From Deltaproteobacteria bacterium (GTDB lineage Bacteria > Myxococcota > Myxococcia > Myxococcales > SZAS-1), in contig JAFEBB010000010.1 in the NCBI GenBank assembly GCA_018266075.1, positions 62,001 to 126,000 of the forward strand: a DNA stretch of 64,000 nt, written 5' to 3'. Within the stretch, counting starts at the first letter, position 1; every line of letters begins with the position of its first letter. Below the pieces are notes generated by a model. The model was not told the DNA's origin and ran no database searches. It saw nothing but the letters and a program-made list of their open reading frames with translations. The position numbers and the translations under genes were made by a program. This document shows positions 10,325-28,906 of this stretch, in pieces.

Positions 10325-10380
10325 GCACCACCGAGGAGGCCCGCAGAAACGGCGAGCGGTGGATGCTGCCAGCCGCCGCC

Positions 10381-10959
10381 CTACGGACGGGTGACCTGGT
10401 CCAGCCAGCGGGTCTCGTCGGCGTCGGGCTGGGGCACGACGGGGGGCTTGCCGGTCTGCCAGGACTCGCCCGACGAGAGCTTCTTCTCGCCCGTGGTGGC
10501 GGCGACCACGGACTGCCCGGCGCGGACCTCCACGCGATTTCCCTCGGCCGTCGCGGCCATCGCCACGCGCGTGCCCGAGGCGGCCGTGCCGACCGTCGCG
10601 CCTTCGACGCCCGCGTTGAGGTCGCGCGGCAGGAGGACGATCACCCGGCCGGAGGTCGCGGCAGCGAAGACGGTGCCGCTCGAGAGCGCGATCCGTCCGC
10701 CGCCCGCCGCTTCGAAGCGCGCGGGACCTTGGACCACGGCGCCACCGCCGGGCACCAGCGACACGGCCCAGGCATCGCCTGGAGGGACGTTCACCCAGCC
10801 GCGGGCGAGGTTCTGGCCTTTGACGCTGCAGGAGCGGCAGTCGCGGATCACGCCGAGCGGCGTCTGGGCGCTGCGATAGGCGAGCAATGCCACGGCCACC
10901 ATGGCCAGGGCGCCGGCCAGCGCCAGGGCAGGCCTGCGAGCGGACGGAGGAGCGGCCAT
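10381..10959 (-). CDS. FecR-like membrane-anchored protein
   Basis: A 192-residue protein with one N-terminal transmembrane segment (ALALAGALAMVAVALLAYR), then a periplasmic beta-rich region that fits the FecR fold (GPARFEAAGGGRIALSSGTVFAA ... TSGTRVAMAATAEGNRVEVRAG, with G-T-R-V...E-V-R-x-G-x-x-V). FecR domains usually sense or transmit envelope signals to an ECF sigma factor, or act as surface modules. No sigma factor gene is adjacent. Two cysteines (DCRSCS) follow the membrane segment. The ATG at 10959 is preferred. It is convergent with rpsI; its own downstream side has no clear terminator. Confidence 0.65.
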   Translation of the reverse strand: MAAPPSARRPALALAGALAMVAVALLAYRSAQTPLGVIRDCRSCSVKGQNLARGWVNVPPGDAWAVSLVPGGGAVVQGPARFEAAGGGRIALSSGTVFAAATSGRVIVLLPRDLNAGVEGATVGTAASGTRVAMAATAEGNRVEVRAGQSVVAATTGEKKLSSGESWQTGKPPVVPQPDADETRWLDQVTRP

Positions 10960-11037
10960 GCGGGCGCACCATGCCACAGCTCCTGGGTTGCCGCTCGCTC
11001 CACCGACGCTTCCCGCCAACCCCCGAGTCAAGGCAGC

Positions 11038-11613
11038 ATGGGCGCCGTGAGCATGCTCGACACCAGCGCCGCGGCGGCGCGGACCTTCGACGCCAAGCTG
11101 GTGGAGGCGCTCTTCGCGCGCGGCCTCGATGGCCAGCTGTCGAAGCGTGCGCGGCGCCGGCTCGAGGATGCGGGCCTGGATCTGCAGCGGCTGCCTGCTC
11201 GGGCCTCGCGCGAGCAGGTGCTGGCGTGGCTGGCGATCGCGGCGGAGGAGCTCGAGCCGGGGATCGATCCCGCGCTGGCGCACCGGCGGCTGGGCGAGCG
11301 GCTGGTGCGCGGCTTCACGGGCGGCTGGCGGACGCGGGCCATGCTCGCAGCGGCGCGGGCCGCGGGCGCCGAGCGGACGCTGGGAAGGCTCGTGGGCCGG
11401 CACAACGCGCCGTCGAACTTCCTGGCGCTCGAGTTCACCCGCGAGGGGCCCGGCGCCTATGCGCTGGAGCTCAATCTGGAAGCGCCGCACCCCGAGCTTT
11501 TGGTGGGCCTGGTCGAGGCCGCGCTGGCCGAGCTGGGCGCGGCGGGAGCCGAGGTGCATCTCGCGGCGCGCGGGCCGCAAGAGCGGCTCGAGATCCGGCT
11601 GCCGAAGCGGTAG
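11038..11613 (+). CDS. DUF2378 / TIGR02265-like protein, Myxococcales-restricted family
   Basis: A 191-residue soluble protein. The pattern fits the short DUF2378 family known from myxobacteria: a Leu/Arg-rich N-terminal half ([28 protein letters not shown]), the RRLGERLVRGF segment, the central NAPSNFLALEFTREGPGAYAL beta region and the C-terminal HPELLVGLVEAALAELGA. The function of the family is unknown. The ATG at 11038 is used; an ATG at 11053 is possible. It is divergent from the FecR-like gene and separated from the IS110 element by 328 bp. Confidence 0.6.
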   Translation: MGAVSMLDTSAAAARTFDAKLVEALFARGLDGQLSKRARRRLEDAGLDLQRLPARASREQVLAWLAIAAEELEPGIDPALAHRRLGERLVRGFTGGWRTRAMLAAARAAGAERTLGRLVGRHNAPSNFLALEFTREGPGAYALELNLEAPHPELLVGLVEAALAELGAAGAEVHLAARGPQERLEIRLPKR

Positions 11614-11941
11614 CGCGCGAGACGAGAGCGGTCGGCCCAATCGTGGCTCGTGGCTCGTGGCTTCCATGAGAAGGCCGCCCCGAGTCAATCGCGGTGGTGA
11701 GCCGGAGTGATGATCGTCCGTCGTCGAGCGTTCGCCCTGCTTCCATCCGCGATCACCATCACCGTGCCGATGGGTCGCATGTAGGGGTCCGGCCGTCGGT
11801 GAGCTGCCATCTCGTTCGCGGGCTCTCGGCCCATAGCCACGATCGCAGTCTCACGGACGGGGCGTTGGCTCCGACGACGGCCGGTCACACACCCCGGCGC
11901 TCCGTCGCGGTTTCCGTCCTTGCGGGTTCTCCCCGCCCGCG
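11614..11941. other. non-coding stretch between DUF2378 gene and IS110 transposase
   Basis: No convincing gene. It starts with a short direct repeat, CGTGGCT three times near 11643-11665. The rest probably includes the transposase-downstream end of the IS110 element, but no boundary, target duplication or terminator could be fixed. A possible 86-codon minus-strand frame has atypical composition and no ribosome-binding site. Confidence 0.5.
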
Positions 11942-13009
11942 TCACACCGCCGCGCTCAGCTCCTTCTTCTTTCCGAAGCCCACCGGCTCATAGGCCGTTC
12001 CGTTCTTCAAGATGCTGTGCATCAGCACCGCGAGCTTCCGCGCCACCGCCACCTTGGCCCGGGCCCGCGCGCGCTTGCTCTCGCCTTGCGCAGCGAGCTT
12101 CAGCCCCCAGGTCCGCAGGTCGCTCTCTCCGCCGAAGGGCCCGAGGATGTAGTTGGCGCAATTCACCAGAAGCCGTCGCAGCAGCGGGTCGCCGCACTTG
12201 CTGATGGAGAGCTCGGGATCTTTGTCGCCGCTCTGCCGTTTGCCAGAGCAGAGGCCGAGGTACGCGCCGACCGTGCGGCTGCGACGGAAGCGCGAGGCAT
12301 CGCCCACCACCAGCACGAAGGCAAGCGCGGTGAGGGTGCCGACGCCGCGGATGGGCGTGAGCAGCGCCACGTCTGGGCGCTTGGCCGCCTCGGCTTCGAT
12401 GCTCTCGTCCAGCGCGGCGATGCTCTGGGCAAGCGCCTGGAGCTGGTCGAAGAGCGGCCAGAGCGCGGGCTGAAGCGAGACCGGGATCTCGCCGCGGTGC
12501 CGGTGCATCGCCGCAGCGTCAATCTTGCTCGGCAGCCTGAACCCGAACGCCTTCATCGCCCCGCGTACGTGGTTGACCAGGCTGGTGCGCAGCTTCACCA
12601 GCTGGTCGCGGCTCCGGATGAGCGCCAGGGCCTCGCGGTCACCGAGCGCACGCGGGGTCACGGGCGAGAGGAGCGAGACATCGCTGCGCCCGAGGCGCGC
12701 CAGGAGCTCGGCGTCGTGACGGTCGGTCTTGCGCCGGCCCTCGCTGATGAGCTTCACCTGCCTGGGGTTGGCCACGATCACCTCGTGACCCGCCTTACGT
12801 AGCACCTCCACGACCCAGCCCGAGTGCGTGCCCACCTCGATCACCACGCGTGTGGCTTTGAGCCGACCGAACTCCGCCTCGAGCGCCGCGGGCTTCGTCG
12901 CCACCTTCGCTCGACGCACCACAGCTCCGCTGGTGTCCAGCATGCACAGCTCAGACTGCTTGTCGCCGAGGTCCACGCCAAGCGTCGTCCCAGTGATAGC
13001 TTCCGCCAT
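11942..13009 (-). CDS. IS110-family transposase (DEDD RuvC-like plus serine Transposase_20)
   Basis: A 355-residue recombinase. The N-terminal RuvC-like domain has all four acidic residues: D13 (GVDLGD), E58 (VVIEVG), D96 and D99 (KTDRHDAELLA). A helical linker is followed by the C-terminal Transposase_20 domain with IRGVGTLTA and the catalytic serine S260 in GKRQSGDK, then ISKCGDPLLRRLL. The intact frame and all key residues suggest an active or recently active enzyme that would be guided by a bridge RNA. A good AAGGAG Shine-Dalgarno sequence precedes the ATG. The non-coding regions on both sides are candidates for the guide RNA. Confidence 0.95.
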   Translation of the reverse strand: MAEAITGTTLGVDLGDKQSELCMLDTSGAVVRRAKVATKPAALEAEFGRLKATRVVIEVGTHSGWVVEVLRKAGHEVIVANPRQVKLISEGRRKTDRHDAELLARLGRSDVSLLSPVTPRALGDREALALIRSRDQLVKLRTSLVNHVRGAMKAFGFRLPSKIDAAAMHRHRGEIPVSLQPALWPLFDQLQALAQSIAALDESIEAEAAKRPDVALLTPIRGVGTLTALAFVLVVGDASRFRRSRTVGAYLGLCSGKRQSGDKDPELSISKCGDPLLRRLLVNCANYILGPFGGESDLRTWGLKLAAQGESKRARARAKVAVARKLAVLMHSILKNGTAYEPVGFGKKKELSAAV

Positions 13010-13044
13010 GGCCGTTCTCTCCTTGCACTTCGAGTGCGCACCAA

Positions 13045-13061
13045 CCTGAGCTTGGCTCAGG
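13045..13061. other. perfect hairpin upstream of IS110 transposase
   Basis: CCTGAGC-TTG-GCTCAGG is a perfect 7-bp stem with a 3-nt loop, 36 bp before the transposase ATG. It could be an internal stem of the element's RNA, a transcription attenuator or a protein site. No T-run follows on either strand. Confidence 0.6.
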
Positions 13062-13183
13062 CGGAGAGAGCGGCCTTCTCATCCCATCTCGTTCGGAGCC
13101 GCGACGACTTCGTTCACGAGAGCCGTTCGCAATCGCGGCCAGATCTGCACGTGCTCCATTTGAACGAGCCACGAATCGCGAGC

Positions 13184-13440
13184 CACGACCGCGTCAGGCC
13201 ATCGCGCGACAGCTGGCGCACCTCCGAGACGCGAGGTCACGAGCACGGGCCACGACCGCGTCAGGCCATCGCGCGACAGCTGGCGCACCTTCGAGACGCG
13301 AGGTCACGAGCACGAGCCACGACCGCGTCAGGCCATCGCGCGACAGCTGGCGCACCTCGGAGGCGCGAGGTCACGAGCACGGGCCACGACCGCATCAGGC
13401 CATCGCGCGACAGCTGGCGCACCTCCGAGACGCGAGGTCA
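13184..13440. repeat. tandem array, about 3.8 copies of a 67-bp unit
   Basis: Units begin at 13184, 13251, 13318 and 13385, exactly 67 bp apart, each starting CACGACCGCGTCAGGCCATC (third base change in unit 4). Copies differ by one to four substitutions only. Each unit holds a short stem, ACCTC...GAGGT, with an 8-nt loop; unit 2 keeps pairing by a G-U wobble. The array ends abruptly at the GGTCA of unit 4. The units are directly joined without spacers, so this is not CRISPR. It lies on the 5' side of the IS110 transposase and 98 bp from the pirin gene end. Confidence 0.95.
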
Positions 13441-13490
13441 CCCCGGACGGGTTTCGAGCGCGTGAGACATGCCGACGCCGAGCGCACCGA

Positions 13491-13510
13491 CCGGATCCAA
13501 TTGGATCCGG
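13491..13510. repeat. 20-bp perfect palindrome of the GGATCC family
   Basis: CCGGATCCAATTGGATCCGG is a perfect palindrome located 28 bp downstream of the pirin stop. It belongs to a set of GGATCC-based inverted repeats found at gene ends in this window. No T-tract follows, so it is not a canonical terminator. Confidence 0.8.
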
Positions 13511-13537
13511 CCCGTGCAGCTCGGCGACGATCCTCGA

Positions 13538-14251
13538 TCACCGCAGGTCGAAGACGAGCAGCTCAGCGCGAGCATCGCCGGTGGCCTTGAGCTCGAGCCG
13601 TGTCTCGTCGGAGATGGCCGCGCCGTCGCCGGCCTGGAGCGCCTGGCCGTTCACGGTGACGCTCCCCCGCGCGAGCTGCACCCAGGCGTGCCGGCCCGGC
13701 GCCAGGTCGAGCGCCACCGACTGACCAGGCTCGAGCAGCCCCGCGCGCACCACCACGTCCTGGTGGATCGCGAGCGAGCCGTCGCGGCCATCGGGCGAGG
13801 CCACCGGACGCAGCACGCCCAGCCGCTCCGCCTCGGGGAAGTTCTTCTGGTCGTACGACGGCGCGATGCCCTTCTTGCCCGGCAGCAGCCAGATCTGGAG
13901 GAAGTGCACCGGCTTCTCGCGCGAGCCGTTGAACTCGCTGTGCTGCACGCCCGAGCCTGCGCTCATGCGCTGCACGTCGCCGGGGCGCAGGGTGCCCCCG
14001 CCGCCGGTCGAATCCCGGTGGGCCAGCTCGCCCTCGAGCACGTAGGAGATGATCTCCATGTCCCGGTGGCCGTGGGTGCCGAAGCCCTGCCCGGCCTCCA
14101 CGCGGTCCTCGTTGATGACCCGCAGGTCACGAAAGCCCATGTGCGCGGGGTCGTAGTAGTCGGCGAAGGAGAAGGTGTGCCGCGTGTCGAGCCAGCCGTG
14201 GTCGAAGTGGGCGCGCGCGGCCGAAGGTCGCAGGGTGATCATGGTCGCCAT
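13538..14251 (-). CDS. pirin family protein (bicupin, YhhW-like)
   Basis: A 237-residue cupin-fold metalloprotein. The N-terminal cupin has the conserved metal site: FGTHGHRDMEIISYVLEG (two His and a Glu) and QHSEFN. The RVINEDRVEAGQGF segment is typical of bacterial pirins with quercetin 2,3-dioxygenase-like activity. Some bacterial pirins (Serratia) bind the pyruvate dehydrogenase E1 subunit and lower its activity; that link is from the literature, not visible here. It is transcribed divergently from an HxlR regulator across a 158-bp region with GTAAC-type inverted repeats, so control by that regulator is likely. The ATG at 14251 or the one 3 codons later may be used. Confidence 0.93.
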   Translation of the reverse strand: MATMITLRPSAARAHFDHGWLDTRHTFSFADYYDPAHMGFRDLRVINEDRVEAGQGFGTHGHRDMEIISYVLEGELAHRDSTGGGGTLRPGDVQRMSAGSGVQHSEFNGSREKPVHFLQIWLLPGKKGIAPSYDQKNFPEAERLGVLRPVASPDGRDGSLAIHQDVVVRAGLLEPGQSVALDLAPGRHAWVQLARGSVTVNGQALQAGDGAAISDETRLELKATGDARAELLVFDLR

Positions 14252-14283
14252 CCTTGGGAAGACGCCCCATCGGGCGTCAGTGA

Positions 14284-14361
14284 CTTACGATTGGTAACCT
14301 AGTAATCATCCGTACGTGACCCGTCAAGCTTACCTCGGGTAACCAGGTTACGATTCGTAAG
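14284..14361. promoter_or_regulatory. GTAAC-type inverted repeats between pirin and HxlR (putative operator)
   Basis: CTTACGATTGGTAACC (14284-14299) and GGTTACGATTCGTAAG (14346-14361) form a 16-bp inverted repeat with 14 matches; GGTAACCAGGTTAC lies at the right side as a smaller palindrome. The region is AT-rich against its surroundings and lies between two divergent genes. The same words recur at 18647-18715 and 28013-28087. Binding by the adjacent HxlR protein is inferred. Confidence 0.6.
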
Positions 14362-14409
14362 TGGCGCGCCAGCCGTGGCGTCTTGGACAGTGAACGAGAG
14401 GACCTCTCC

Positions 14410-14793
14410 ATGGCCGACCCCGTGAAGACCGCGTTCTGCCCTCGCTTCCACCGGGCCGCCGAGCTGGTGGGCAGGCGGTGGACGGGCGCCATCGTCCGCG
14501 CCCTCCTCAATGGCGTGACACGCTTCAACGACCTCGCCGACGCCGTGCCCGGCCTCTCCCCGCGGCTGCTCACCGCCCGCTTGCGCGAGCTGGAGGCCGA
14601 GGAGATCGTGGTGCGCGAGGTCTCCGGCGAATCACCCCTGCGCGTGACCTACAGCCTCACCTACAAGGGCCGCGCCCTGGCCAAGGTGGTCGACGCGCTC
14701 ACCGAGTGGGCCCACGACTGGACGGAAGCCTTGCCCGGCGACCCCGCCGACCTGGGCCATCCGACGCATCCGAAGAAGCCCGCGAGGCGCTAG
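14410..14793 (+). CDS. HxlR-family winged-helix transcriptional regulator
   Basis: A 127-residue regulator with the HxlR signature: CPRFHRAAELVGRRWTGAIVRALLNGVTRFNDLADAVPGLSPRLLTARLRELE, split by the recognition helix, and a wing ending VTYSLTYKGRALAKVVDAL. It has one cysteine near the N-terminus (FCPRF), which in redox-sensing HxlR members such as YodB/HypR is the sensor residue. The ATG at 14410 gives the standard family length; a TTG at 14383 is less likely. The divergent pirin gene is the obvious target, and the GTAAC repeats between them are the likely site. A role at the distant GTAAC arrays is a hypothesis. Confidence 0.92.
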   Translation: MADPVKTAFCPRFHRAAELVGRRWTGAIVRALLNGVTRFNDLADAVPGLSPRLLTARLRELEAEEIVVREVSGESPLRVTYSLTYKGRALAKVVDALTEWAHDWTEALPGDPADLGHPTHPKKPARR

Positions 14794-14796
14794 GTC

Positions 14797-14900
14797 CAGT
14801 TCCTGGTTCCTCGTTCCTGGTTCCTGGTTTTCGAGCGCCAGGACGCATGGCGAGAGGCCTGGAACTGGAAGGGAGAAGGGGCCGTCCGCCAGGAACCAGG
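14797..14900. repeat. intergenic GTTCCTG repeats with 12-bp inverted copy
   Basis: After the HxlR stop, GTTCCTGG/GTTCCTCG occurs four times in a row (about 14800-14829). About 65 bp later, CCAGGAACCAGG is the exact inverse of CCTGGTTCCTGG in the first block, so a long-range hairpin can form. It precedes polX and may act as a processing or termination structure for HxlR mRNA. No known family recognised. Confidence 0.6.
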
Positions 14901-14949
14901 AGCTCGAGGCCACTTGCGCCAGGCCCGAGCGCCTGCATATCTGGCGGCC

Positions 14950-16701
14950 ATGAGCGAACCCGACAAGGCCGAGCTCGTCCGCGTGCTGCGCGAGATTGGG
15001 CTCTTGCTGCAGCTCAAGGGCGAGAGCGTCTACAAGGTGCGCGCCTACGAGAAGGCCGCCGACGTGCTCGTCCAGTACCAGGGCGCGCTCCGGCCGCTCA
15101 TCGACGAGGGACGGCTCGAGGAGCTGGAGGGCTTTGGCAAGGCCATCGCCACCAAGATCTCGGAGCTGGTGCAGACGGGTAGGCTTCCCTACTACGACGA
15201 GCTCGTCGCCGAGTTCCCCATCACCCTGCTCGAGGTGGTGCAGATCAACGGCGTGGGCCCCAAGAAGGCCGCGACGCTGCACCGCGAGCTGGGCGTGGTG
15301 GACCTCGCCAGCCTGGAGAAGGCCTGCCGCGAGCAGCGCGTGCGCACGCTCAAGGGCTTCGGGGAGAAGAGCGAGCTCTCCATCCTCGAGGGCCTGGCCG
15401 CGCTCGCCAAGCGTTCGACGCGCACGCCGCTCTCGAAGGCGCGGCCCCTCGCCGAGCGCGCGCTCGAGCAGGTGAAGGCGCTGCCCGGCATCGTGCGCGC
15501 GGAGATTGCCGGGAGCACGCGGCGCTGGTCGGAGACGGTAGGCGACCTGGACATCGTCGCGTCGATCGCCGAGGGCGCCGACCCGCTGCCGGTGATGGAG
15601 GCCTTCTGCGCGCTGCCGGGCGTGATGAAGGTGCTGGGCACGGGGCCGACCAAGTCGTCGGTGATGATCGACGGCATGCAGCTCGACTTCCGCGTGGTGG
15701 GCGACGCCGACTTCGGCACCGCGCTCCACCACTTCACGGGCAGCAAGGCGCACCACGTGAAGCTCCGCGGGCTCGCGCGCGAGAAGCGGCTCACCATCAG
15801 CGAGTGGGGGCTCTACCGCCTCGACGAGAAGGGCAACGAGGGCGAGAAGCTCACCATCCCCGACGAGGCCGCGCTCTACCGCGCCCTGGACATGGACTTC
15901 ATTCCGCCCGAGCTGCGCGAGGACCGCGGTGAGATCGAGGCCGCGCGCGCCCACCGCATGCCAGACCTGGTGGAGCTCGAAGACCTGCAGGGCATCACCC
16001 ACGCGCACACCACCGACTCCGACGGCGCCAACTCGGTCGAGGAGATGGCCCAGGCCGCGGCTTCACGGGGAGTGAAGTACCTGAGCATCACCGATCACTC
16101 GCGCGCCGCCGGCTATGCGCACGGCATGGAGATCGATCGCCTCAAGCGCCAGTGGGACGAGATCGATCGCGTGAATTCGCTCGGGCTCGGCGTGCGCGTG
16201 CTCAAGGGCTCCGAGGTGGACATCCTCGAGGACGGCACGCTCGACTACCCCGACGAGATCCTCGAGAAGCTCGAGGTGGTGATCGCGTCGATCCACTCGC
16301 GCTTCAAGATGGACACGGACCAGATGACCGCGCGCATCTCTCGCGCGTTCGACAACCCGCACCTGCACATCTGGGGACACGCCACCGGTCGGCTCATCGG
16401 AACCCGCGACGGCTACGGGCTGCACATGGAGCAGCTCCTCGACAAGGCGGCGGCCCGCGGTGTGGCCATCGAGGTGAACGGCACGCCCGCGCGGCTGGAT
16501 CTCTCGGCGGATCACGCGCGGCTCGCGAAGGCGCGCGGCGTGAAGCTGGTGCTCTCCACCGACGCGCACGCCGTGGGCGAGCTCGATCACCTGCGCTGGG
16601 CCGTGGCCACCGCGCGCCGCGCCGGCGTCGAGAAGACCGACGTGCTCACCCGCCTGCCCGTGGAGAAGTTCGTGTCCACGCTGCGCGGGATGCGGCACTG
16701 A
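14950..16701 (+). CDS. polX: DNA polymerase/3'-5' exonuclease PolX
   Basis: A 583-residue repair polymerase. Order: N-terminal 8-kDa/HhH region (residues 1-150, with GFGKAIATKI and NGVGPKKAATL helix-hairpin-helix motifs), X-family nucleotidyl transferase core with GSTRRWSETVGDLDIV (catalytic D199 and D201) and a third Asp in MQLDF, then a C-terminal PHP domain beginning near residue 350 (HAHTTDSDG, TDHS, SIHSRF, GHATGRL, STDAH) giving the metal-dependent 3'-5' exonuclease. Length matches bacterial PolX. The start has an AT-rich CATATC box 8 nt upstream and no Shine-Dalgarno. It acts in gap-filling base-excision repair. It is convergent with the CXXCH lipoprotein gene. Confidence 0.95.
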   Translation: MSEPDKAELVRVLREIGLLLQLKGESVYKVRAYEKAADVLVQYQGALRPLIDEGRLEELEGFGKAIATKISELVQTGRLPYYDELVAEFPITLLEVVQINGVGPKKAATLHRELGVVDLASLEKACREQRVRTLKGFGEKSELSILEGLAALAKRSTRTPLSKARPLAERALEQVKALPGIVRAEIAGSTRRWSETVGDLDIVASIAEGADPLPVMEAFCALPGVMKVLGTGPTKSSVMIDGMQLDFRVVGDADFGTALHHFTGSKAHHVKLRGLAREKRLTISEWGLYRLDEKGNEGEKLTIPDEAALYRALDMDFIPPELREDRGEIEAARAHRMPDLVELEDLQGITHAHTTDSDGANSVEEMAQAAASRGVKYLSITDHSRAAGYAHGMEIDRLKRQWDEIDRVNSLGLGVRVLKGSEVDILEDGTLDYPDEILEKLEVVIASIHSRFKMDTDQMTARISRAFDNPHLHIWGHATGRLIGTRDGYGLHMEQLLDKAAARGVAIEVNGTPARLDLSADHARLAKARGVKLVLSTDAHAVGELDHLRWAVATARRAGVEKTDVLTRLPVEKFVSTLRGMRH

Positions 16702-28170: not shown

Positions 28171-28812
28171 ATGGCCGAGCTCCTGAGCGACGCGCTGGAG
28201 TCGTACATCGAGAACCACACGCGCGACGTGGCGCCGCTGTTCCACGAGCTGCGCACCGAGACCTACGCCACGATGCGCTCTCCGGGCATGCAGGTGGGCC
28301 GCGTGGAAGGGCGCGTCCTGCAGCTCCTGGTGCGGCTGGTGGGCGCTCGGCGCGTCCTCGAGCTGGGGATGTTCACCGGCTACTCCGCGCTCATGATGGC
28401 CGAGGCCCTGCCCGCCGACGGCGAGCTCATCACCTGCGACATCGACCCCAAGGCCGAGGAGATGGCGCGCCGCTACTTCGACAAGAGCCCGCACGGAAAG
28501 AAGATCCACATCCGCATGGGCCCCGCGCTGGACACGATCCGCAGCCTGAGCGGCTCGCTCGACTTCGTCTTCATCGACGCCGACAAGGAGAACTACCCCG
28601 CGTACTGGGAAGCCCTCGTGCCCAAGGTGCGGCAGGGCGGCCTCCTCGTGGCCGACAACGTTCTCTGGAGCGGCAGCATCATCGACAGCGCGGACCAGAA
28701 GCCGAGCACGGTGGCGCTCCGAAGGTTCAACGAGATCGTCCAGGCCGACGCGCGGGTGGAGAACGTGCTCATGTCCGTGCGCGACGGGATGATGGTCTCG
28801 CGCAAGCTTTGA
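28171..28812 (+). CDS. SAM-dependent O-methyltransferase (caffeoyl-CoA OMT family)
   Basis: A 213-residue class I methyltransferase. Seen: RRVLELGMFTGYSALMMAEALP-type motif I, the acidic ITCDIDPKA (ribose binding), FDFVFIDADKENYPAYWEALV-type motif IV (metal ligand Asp) and LLVADNVLWSGSI (Asp-Asn metal ligands). This is the cation-dependent catechol/caffeoyl-CoA OMT family. The natural substrate is unknown. GGAGG lies 4 nt before the ATG. The GTAAC array upstream suggests shared control with pirin and pdhC. Confidence 0.92.
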   Translation: MAELLSDALESYIENHTRDVAPLFHELRTETYATMRSPGMQVGRVEGRVLQLLVRLVGARRVLELGMFTGYSALMMAEALPADGELITCDIDPKAEEMARRYFDKSPHGKKIHIRMGPALDTIRSLSGSLDFVFIDADKENYPAYWEALVPKVRQGGLLVADNVLWSGSIIDSADQKPSTVALRRFNEIVQADARVENVLMSVRDGMMVSRKL

Positions 28813-28817
28813 CCCGG

Positions 28818-28906
28818 CGTTCCCTGACCGATCGTTCACTGACCCATCGTTCACTGACCCATCGTTCACTGACCCATCGTTCACTGACCCGCGGGTCGCT
28901 GACCCG
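28818..28906. repeat. 15-bp tandem repeat, five copies plus a degenerate sixth
   Basis: CGTTCACTGACCCAT is repeated at exactly 15-bp steps from 28818 (28818, 28833, 28848, 28863, 28878), the first copy diverged and a sixth (GGGTCGCTGACCC) degenerate. It begins 6 bp after the O-methyltransferase stop. The outer right end has GACCCGCGGGTC, a 12-bp palindrome. It is a minisatellite, not CRISPR. Confidence 0.93.

What the first reader, a model, noticed from the sequence alone, without database searches (positions are those of the whole stretch)
11942..13440. IS110 element with a four-unit 67-bp tandem array on its 5' side
The transposase has intact D13, E58, D96, D99 and S260. IS110 enzymes use a bridge RNA from a non-coding end. 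Here the transposase-upstream side holds a perfect 7-bp hairpin (13045-13061) and a nearly perfect 4 x 67-bp direct array whose units each keep an ACCTC/GAGGT stem. The array might be multiple guide-RNA modules, an expanded IS end, or a genomic minisatellite used as the target site.
Basis: partly seen in the sequence, partly recalled or inferred. Interest (0 to 1): 0.55.

Follow-up and report, generated by a model that had tools for sequence, protein, structure and literature searches.

The report
RNA-guided IS1111 element beside unrelated minisatellite
This is a single jumping gene of the RNA-guided IS1111 type, whose guide RNA sits downstream of its transposase and matches a short repeat of its own host genome; the conspicuous 67-base repeats next to it lie outside it and are not its guides.

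Summary
The transposase, the 7-bp hairpin and the 4 x 67-bp array are present, but the anatomy differs from the proposal. Comparison with two relatives and an own-genome remnant puts the element at 11663-13089 (minus strand, 1427 bp); the array (13182-13441) starts 92 bp outside. The element has 13-bp subterminal inverted repeats with 7- and 3-bp extensions, and its long non-coding region is downstream of the transposase. A conserved structured RNA lies at 11734-11863, with compensatory base pairs and two short guides that match the element's own flanks in the IS1111 order. A covariance model from three copies found six more loci. Across seven distinct guides, T guide and right flank track each other: the true pairing is the best of 5040 permutations. 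The RNA is programmed for CGAACG-AG-CCACGA; this 14-mer has 5 unoccupied exact sites in this genome and at most one in each of 144 other genomes of the order. It is the head of a dispersed heptamer repeat, comparable to the REP repeats that some relatives target. A well-supported new member of a known kind; whether it still moves is not shown.

The parts
11663..13089 (-). complete IS1111-type insertion sequence, 1427 bp
   Evidence: both ends shared with L009 and L010, left end also with own-genome remnant L002
13083..13089 (-). 7-bp left terminal extension AGATGGG (contains the AG core dinucleotide)
13070..13082 (-). left subterminal inverted repeat ATGAGAAGGCCGC
11666..11678 (-). right subterminal inverted repeat, exact 13-bp complement of the left one
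11663..11665 (-). 3-bp right terminal extension GGA
11942..13009 (-). DEDD transposase, 355 aa
   Evidence: Pfam PF01548 + PF02371; NCBIfam NF033542 'IS110 family RNA-guided transposase' 224.7 bits against a cut-off of 140
11734..11863 (-). conserved structured RNA (seekRNA / bridge RNA) in the 3' non-coding region
   Evidence: alignment A2, compensatory pairs, model R1 matches
11835..11842 (-). T guide UCGUGGCU, complement of the right flank AGCCACGA (8 of 8)
11811..11818 (-). B guide CGAACG + core AG, same as the left flank CGAACG + AG
11684..11688 (-). TTGAC, -35-like, 26 nt from the right end; would form a promoter with the left end in a circular junction
   Evidence: same distance in 7 of 8 right ends examined
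13045..13061 (-). leader hairpin 1 between left end and transposase start
   Evidence: 8-9 pairs with a 3-nt loop in 4 of 4 copies, different letters
13025..13037 (-). leader hairpin 2 GCACT CGA AGTGC, directly before the ribosome-binding-site-like AAGGAGAG
   Evidence: 5 pairs in 4 of 4 copies
11641..11662 (.). target, one half: heptamer repeat tract
13090..13095 (.). target, other half: CGTTCG (CGAACG on the minus strand)
13162..13188 (+). second, unoccupied copy of the dispersed repeat GAACGAGCCACGA..., inverted to the target copy, running into the first bases of the array
13182..13441 (.). 67-bp minisatellite, 3.9 units, outside the element
13473..13529 (.). palindrome between the array and the 3' end of the pirin gene (13538-14251, minus), terminator-like
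   Evidence: self-match 86% over 57 bp; pirin by Pfam

Best explanation
A complete IS1111-type insertion sequence. It leaves its donor site as a circle; the abutted ends form a promoter that transcribes the transposase and the downstream non-coding region. A roughly 130-nt seekRNA (bridge RNA) from that region binds the DEDD transposase. Its T guide pairs with the top strand of the target and its B guide with the bottom strand, overlapping at the AG core, and the circle is inserted there. This copy is programmed for CGAACG-AG-CCACGA, the head of a dispersed heptamer repeat of its own host genome, and sits in such a repeat between two genes that end towards each other. The 67-bp array is an independent minisatellite 92 bp away in the same intergenic region. 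Shown by sequence: ends, inverted repeats, RNA conservation and covariation, match of guides to flanks, target repeat. Inferred from experimentally studied relatives: circle, transcription, RNA binding, insertion. The confidence below is for identity and guide assignment; that this copy is still active I put at about 0.75.
For: Ends: AGATGGGATGAGAAGGCCG at the left end in the window, L009 and L010 (one change in the own-genome remnant L002), and GGCCTTCTCATGGA at the right end in the window, L009 and L010; beyond them blastn finds no significant similarity. RNA: on A2, 17 of 17 named pairs form in 3 of 3 sequences, 5 with changes on both sides; on A3, 9 sequences, 91.4% of cells pair, 6 pairs have changes on both sides, 0 of 500 shuffles reach this (A3 was fitted to the model). 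Guides: the B guide matches its own left flank by 6, 4 and 5 letters against at most 2 for another element's flank (3 elements). In the set register the T guide matches its own right flank 8/8, 7/8, 5/5, 6/8, 6/8, 8/8, 6/8 over 7 distinct guides; the true assignment is the best of 5040, also without the AG core; for the window plus the four guides found by the model it is the best of 120. Leader: own-flank matches there are only 3 (T) and 3-4 (B with core) against 5-8 and 6-8 in the 3' region (3 elements). Model hits: 9 places in 8 of 195 genomes, six of them not used to build it. Target: CGAACGAGCCACGA at 5 sites in this genome, 1 in each of 4 others, none in 140 (145 searched; reversed control 6 sites in all). 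TTGAC 26 nt from the right end in 7 of 8 examined. Flanking genes converge: DUF2378 (10363-11613, plus) and pirin (13538-14251, minus) by Pfam.
Against: Only one PF01548 match in this genome, so recent movement is not shown. The target of L010 is not enriched in its genome: 12 hits with up to 1 mismatch against 17 for the reversed control. L010's contig ends 5 nt past the element, and when the T guide is sought without fixed register its RNA matches the window's flank (5) as well as its own (5). T guides of L142, L143, L144 and L147 match 6 of 8 only. The array's minus strand also holds an 8-letter T-like match, with only 4 letters for B. The transposase reads GL-S----SG where the IS1111 motif is GL-P----S(T)G. 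Donor guides were only half identified (ATGGAAG). The RNA's ends are set by conservation, not measured. No Rfam match in 11000-15000 up to E 1.
Confidence: 0.93

Rival explanations
1. The 67-bp array is part of the element: several guide-RNA modules or an expanded left end.
For: It lies on the transposase-upstream side, where IS110-group elements carry their RNA (PMC11187229, PMC11208160). Units carry a (G/A)GCCACGAC stretch like the target repeat, and its minus strand holds an 8-letter complement of the right flank.
Against: The left end shared by the window, L009, L010 and L002 is at 13089, 92 bp before the array; blastn pieces end at 13089-13103 and no significant one lies in the array (one 27-bp L010 piece there has E 0.30). 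Of 69 listed matches of the RNA model in 11000-14500 none lies in 13182-13441. The first unit does not fold better than shuffles.
Confidence: 0.02
2. IS110-group element with its guide RNA in the 5' leader, where the conserved hairpin lies.
For: Two conserved hairpins in the 80-bp leader.
Against: The leader is 80 bp, the 3' region 279 bp. Own-flank matches in the leader are 3 (T) and 3-4 (B with core) against 5-8 and 6-8 in the 3' region. Long exact subterminal repeats mark IS1111 (PMC11187229 introduction, read).
Confidence: 0.02
3. The element is right as described but dead: an old insertion that no longer moves.
For: Single copy; a left-end remnant elsewhere in the genome, L002.
Against: Open 355-aa frame, all five catalytic letters, both ends intact, guides still matching the flanks.
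Confidence: 0.2
4. Guide-flank matches are chance or come from the way the guides were picked.
For: Guides are short, and their register was chosen on the first three copies.
Against: The 8-letter T register was set before the six further loci were found. For the window, chance of 6 contiguous B matches is 3e-4 and of 8 T matches 2e-4 in a simulation with random flanks; best of 5040 permutations.
Confidence: 0.02

Closest known systems
IS1111 family elements with seekRNA (ISEc11, ISKpn4, ISPst6, ISPa11; PMC11187229: abstract, introduction, start of Results, sections 6, 9 and 13 and passages read)
   Same: 11-13-bp subterminal repeats with 7- and 3-bp extensions, downstream non-coding region, T match before B match, overlapping at the insertion point; ISPa11 also targets a dispersed genomic repeat (REP)
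   Different: transposase has S for P in the GL-P----SG motif; target is a heptamer-repeat head; conserved RNA block about 130 nt against seekRNAs of 70-100 nt (a longer form is also described there)
IS621 and the IS110 group with bridge RNA (PMC11208160 section 12 and passages; PMC11208158 passages)
   Same: DEDD + serine transposase (phmmer to 8wt6, 5.2e-9), CT core (AG on the other strand), dispersed repeats as target
   Different: the IS110 group has its RNA in the left end and a 2-3-bp repeat pattern; here the RNA is in the right end and the repeats are 13 bp
   Same: same ends, same RNA, 48-52% transposase identity
   Different: other guides and flanks; L010's element is 1668 bp, about 240 bp longer

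Membership tests
IS1111 family | subterminal inverted repeats of 11-13 bp | tested here: met
   13 of 13 bp, ATGAGAAGGCCGC
IS1111 family | terminal extensions of 7 bp left and 3 bp right | tested here: met
   AGATGGG and GGA, same in L009 and L010
IS1111 family | long non-coding region downstream of tnp | tested here: met
   279 bp downstream (11663-11941), 80 bp upstream (13010-13089)
IS1111 family | RNA with top-strand complement before bottom-strand match | tested here: met
   T guide 11835-11842 precedes B guide 11811-11818 on the minus strand
IS1111 family | no target duplication | tested here: met
   joined flanks read as one uninterrupted repeat like other copies in the genome; no empty allele was seen
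IS1111 family | GL-P----S(T)G motif | tested here: not met
   GLCSGKRQSG: spacing kept, P replaced by S; a consensus pattern in the paper, not used there to define the family
IS1111 family | transposase in the IS1111 branch of the tree | not tested
   no tree was made; tblastn to IS4321 (an IS1111 family member) 26.8%, IS621 only a distant match
IS1111 family | RNA co-purifies with the transposase, circular intermediate | not testable with these tools
   experiment; TTGAC at the right end fits a junction promoter
IS110 group (IS110, IS621) | long left end with the RNA, repeats absent or 2-3 bp | tested here: not met
   left end 80 bp, right end 279 bp with the RNA, 13-bp repeats

The most novel reading that the evidence does not exclude
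In this family the guide RNA with its right end outlives the transposase. Of six further loci found by the RNA model, five (L142, L143, L145, L146, L147) show no transposase match within about 1.5 kb on either side and one (L144) only a C-terminal scrap. All six keep the first stem with a T guide that matches the flank at 6-8 of 8 letters, although L145 and L146 have lost most of the second domain. They could be non-autonomous units moved in trans, or guide RNAs kept by the host, rather than plain 5' truncations.
Probability: 0.07. Interest if true: 0.6.

Novelty: new member of a known kind. Interest (0 to 1): 0.3.

Why it matters
It corrects where to look in such elements: the guide RNA can be downstream, and a striking array next to an element may have nothing to do with it. 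It also gives a set of related elements with one RNA scaffold and seven guides that track their flanks, which is natural reprogramming of a programmable recombinase that can be read from sequence. The window's copy is aimed at a repeat that is multi-copy in its own genome and nearly absent from 144 others of the order.

Tried and rejected
Array as guide modules: rejected, although its minus strand holds one 8-letter T-like match, as expected of a unit that contains a piece of the target repeat.

Array elsewhere: in the own genome no second copy was found; the best other match to array letters is 75% over 80 bp, E 0.0086, at C10:129476-129555 (40 of 84 candidates scored). In the order, the query 13090-13545 gave 59 of 145 genomes, own included, with E up to 0.01, outside the own genome only pieces of 20-67 bp at E 5.1e-5 or worse; only 4 candidates per genome were scored.

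Other searches: Rfam, nothing up to E 1. Close relatives: genome contigs gave one partial locus, L007, without recognisable ends; viral contigs none; plasmids only distant ones, 38% at best of the rows listed. Relatives at E 1e-45: 3 of 145 genomes of the order and 3 of 195 of the phylum, both counts including the own genome. The RNA model on 18 held sources gave, besides the three building copies, 9 weak rows with E 0.0095 to 0.67 (best L023, 23.1 bits, and L015, 22.2 bits), not followed. Repeat status of the L010 target: not enriched; the L009 target was not searched. A first RNA alignment (A1) was cut at the wrong place and replaced by A2. Donor guide: ATGGAAG in the conserved GGATGGAAGC fits the right end plus core; a conserved complement of AGATGGG was not seen by eye. 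In the permutation test L144 and L146 were left out because they carry the same guide as L143; L146 matches 8 of 8 (12 of 12 when read further in A3). Search for the heptamer repeat in print: GAGCCACGAGCCACGA, 0 papers, one string only. No structure prediction and no transposase tree were made.

Full report
What is there. The window lies in a draft genome of 7.84 Mb in 166 contigs (contig C10); its relatives in the order include genomes up to 13.8 Mb, and one record with a relative of the transposase is titled Myxococcales (L007). A 355-aa transposase is encoded at 11942-13009 on the minus strand, with both Pfam domains of the IS110 superfamily and the NCBIfam model 'IS110 family RNA-guided transposase'. 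It is the only PF01548 match in the genome. D13, E58, D96, D99 and S260 are present; IS621 uses D11, E60, D102, D105 and S241 (PMC11208158, passages), and the query's SG aligns with that of IS621.

The ends. Three other copies fix the ends: L009 and L010 from other families of the order (48% and 52% aa identity), and L002, a left-end remnant in the same genome (75% over 130 bp). The window, L009 and L010 begin AGATGGGATGAGAAGGCCG; L002 has one change. Blastn pieces on this side end at 13089 (L002), 13091 (L009) and 13103 (L010), and no significant similarity lies further out. The window, L009 and L010 end GGCCTTCTCATGGA, followed by AG and different letters. This gives 11663-13089, 1427 bp. 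The inverted repeat ATGAGAAGGCCGC is exact over 13 bp, with 7 bp outside it on the left and 3 bp on the right. [quoted passage not shown]

The array. The 67-bp array begins at 13182, 92 bp beyond the left end. It is real. No second copy was found in the genome (best other match 75% over 80 bp, E 0.0086), and the 145 genomes of the order gave only short pieces (four candidates scored per genome). No match of the RNA model lies in it, and its first unit folds no better than shuffles. Its unit length is not a multiple of three. It lies between the element and the 3' end of a pirin gene on the minus strand (13538-14251, Pfam 7.8e-36); the gene on the other side of the element is a plus-strand DUF2378 gene (within 10363-11613), so the two genes end towards each other. 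The reading is an ordinary minisatellite; what it does, if anything, was not resolved.

The RNA. The 3' non-coding regions of the window, L009 and L010 share a block of 130-147 nt. A stem encloses an internal loop whose two strands hold the guides, capped by a hairpin, and a second hairpin follows. On A2 all 17 named pairs form in 3 of 3 sequences, 5 with changes on both sides; 2 of 500 shuffles reach the covariation score, and slid versions pair at 20-45%. A covariance model from these three found 9 places in 8 of 195 genomes of the phylum, six of them new. With all nine (alignment fitted to the model) 91.4% of cells pair, 6 pairs have changes on both sides and no shuffle of 500 reaches this; pair 7-85 is broken in 5 of 9. 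The window's RNA folds at z -2.07.

The guides. Directly before the conserved AGATGGCAGC stands a copy of the end of the left flank: 6, 4 and 5 letters for the window, L009 and L010, against at most 2 for another element's flank. Some nucleotides earlier stands the complement of the right flank. In the register set, the T guide matches its own flank in 46 of 53 letters over seven distinct guides, and no other assignment out of 5040 does as well, with or without the AG core. L142 and L147 each miss one core letter. Sought without fixed register, L010's RNA matches the window's flank by 5 letters, as many as its own. L144 and L146 share the guide of L143 and were left out of the permutation. In the leader, own-flank matches are only 3 (T) and 3-4 (B with core), in the 3' region 5-8 and 6-8 (3 elements). 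The order T before B is that of IS1111, the reverse of IS110.

The target. Joining the flanks gives CCGAACG-AGCCACGAGCCACGAGCCACGATTGG, one uninterrupted copy of a dispersed repeat. The 17-mer CGAGCCACGAGCCACGA has 31 places with up to one mismatch in the genome, some overlapping in one tract and one being the element's own flank, and none for the reversed control. GAACGAGCCACGA has 7 exact places, one of them in the window at 13162-13174; with up to one mismatch 70 against 15 for the reversed control, but 24 of the 70 read GAACGACCCACGA, probably another sequence. Of the 7 exact places 5 overlap no ORF with GC3 above 0.85. The full programmed 14-mer CGAACGAGCCACGA has 5 places in this genome, one in each of 4 others and none in 140 (reversed control 6 places in all). 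A second copy of the repeat lies inverted 72 bp beyond the left end (13162-13188) and runs into the first bases of the array. Elements of this kind that target dispersed repeats are known: ISPa11 in Pseudomonas REP (PMC11187229) and IS621 in E. coli REP (PMC11208160, passages).

Expression. TTGAC lies 26 nt from the right end in 7 of 8 right ends examined (L145, a deletion derivative, lacks it, and L146 was not among the eight). In a circle it would stand before the AGAT of the left end, fitting the junction promoter described for the family; the scan of the linear form found no promoter-like site in 11500-14300. The second lies just before the ribosome-binding-site-like AAGGAGAG. A role in keeping read-through transcripts from being translated is a guess.

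Verdict. An IS1111-type element by five layout features tested and met, with one consensus motif letter off and the transposase tree not made. The finding's array is a bystander. New member of a known kind; the host-tuned guide and the nine RNA loci are worth recording.

Noticed in passing
L142, L143, L144, L145, L146, L147 (RNA from about 1501): RNA with right end but without a transposase (L144 with a C-terminal scrap), similarity ending at different points on the 5' side; L145 and L146 are also shortened after the first stem, and L146 keeps only the last letters of the right end.
   Followed up: partly
own genome, e.g. C12:17282-17378 (L005, L089): Dispersed heptamer repeat (CGAGCCA)n with a head GAACGAGCC; at C12 and in the window two copies face each other in inverted orientation, reminiscent of REP pairs.
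   Followed up: partly
own genome, many contigs: GAACGACCCACGA occurs 24 times among the one-mismatch hits of the target motif, more often than the exact motif (7); not looked into.
   Followed up: no
window 28810-28905: Tandem array TGACCCATCGTTCAC, 15-bp unit, 5.4 copies.
   Followed up: no
window 13473-13529: 57-bp palindrome around GGATCCAATTGGATCC between the array and the pirin gene, terminator-like.
   Followed up: no
L010:2760-3032: This copy is about 240 bp longer, most of it between RNA and right end; origin not examined.
   Followed up: no
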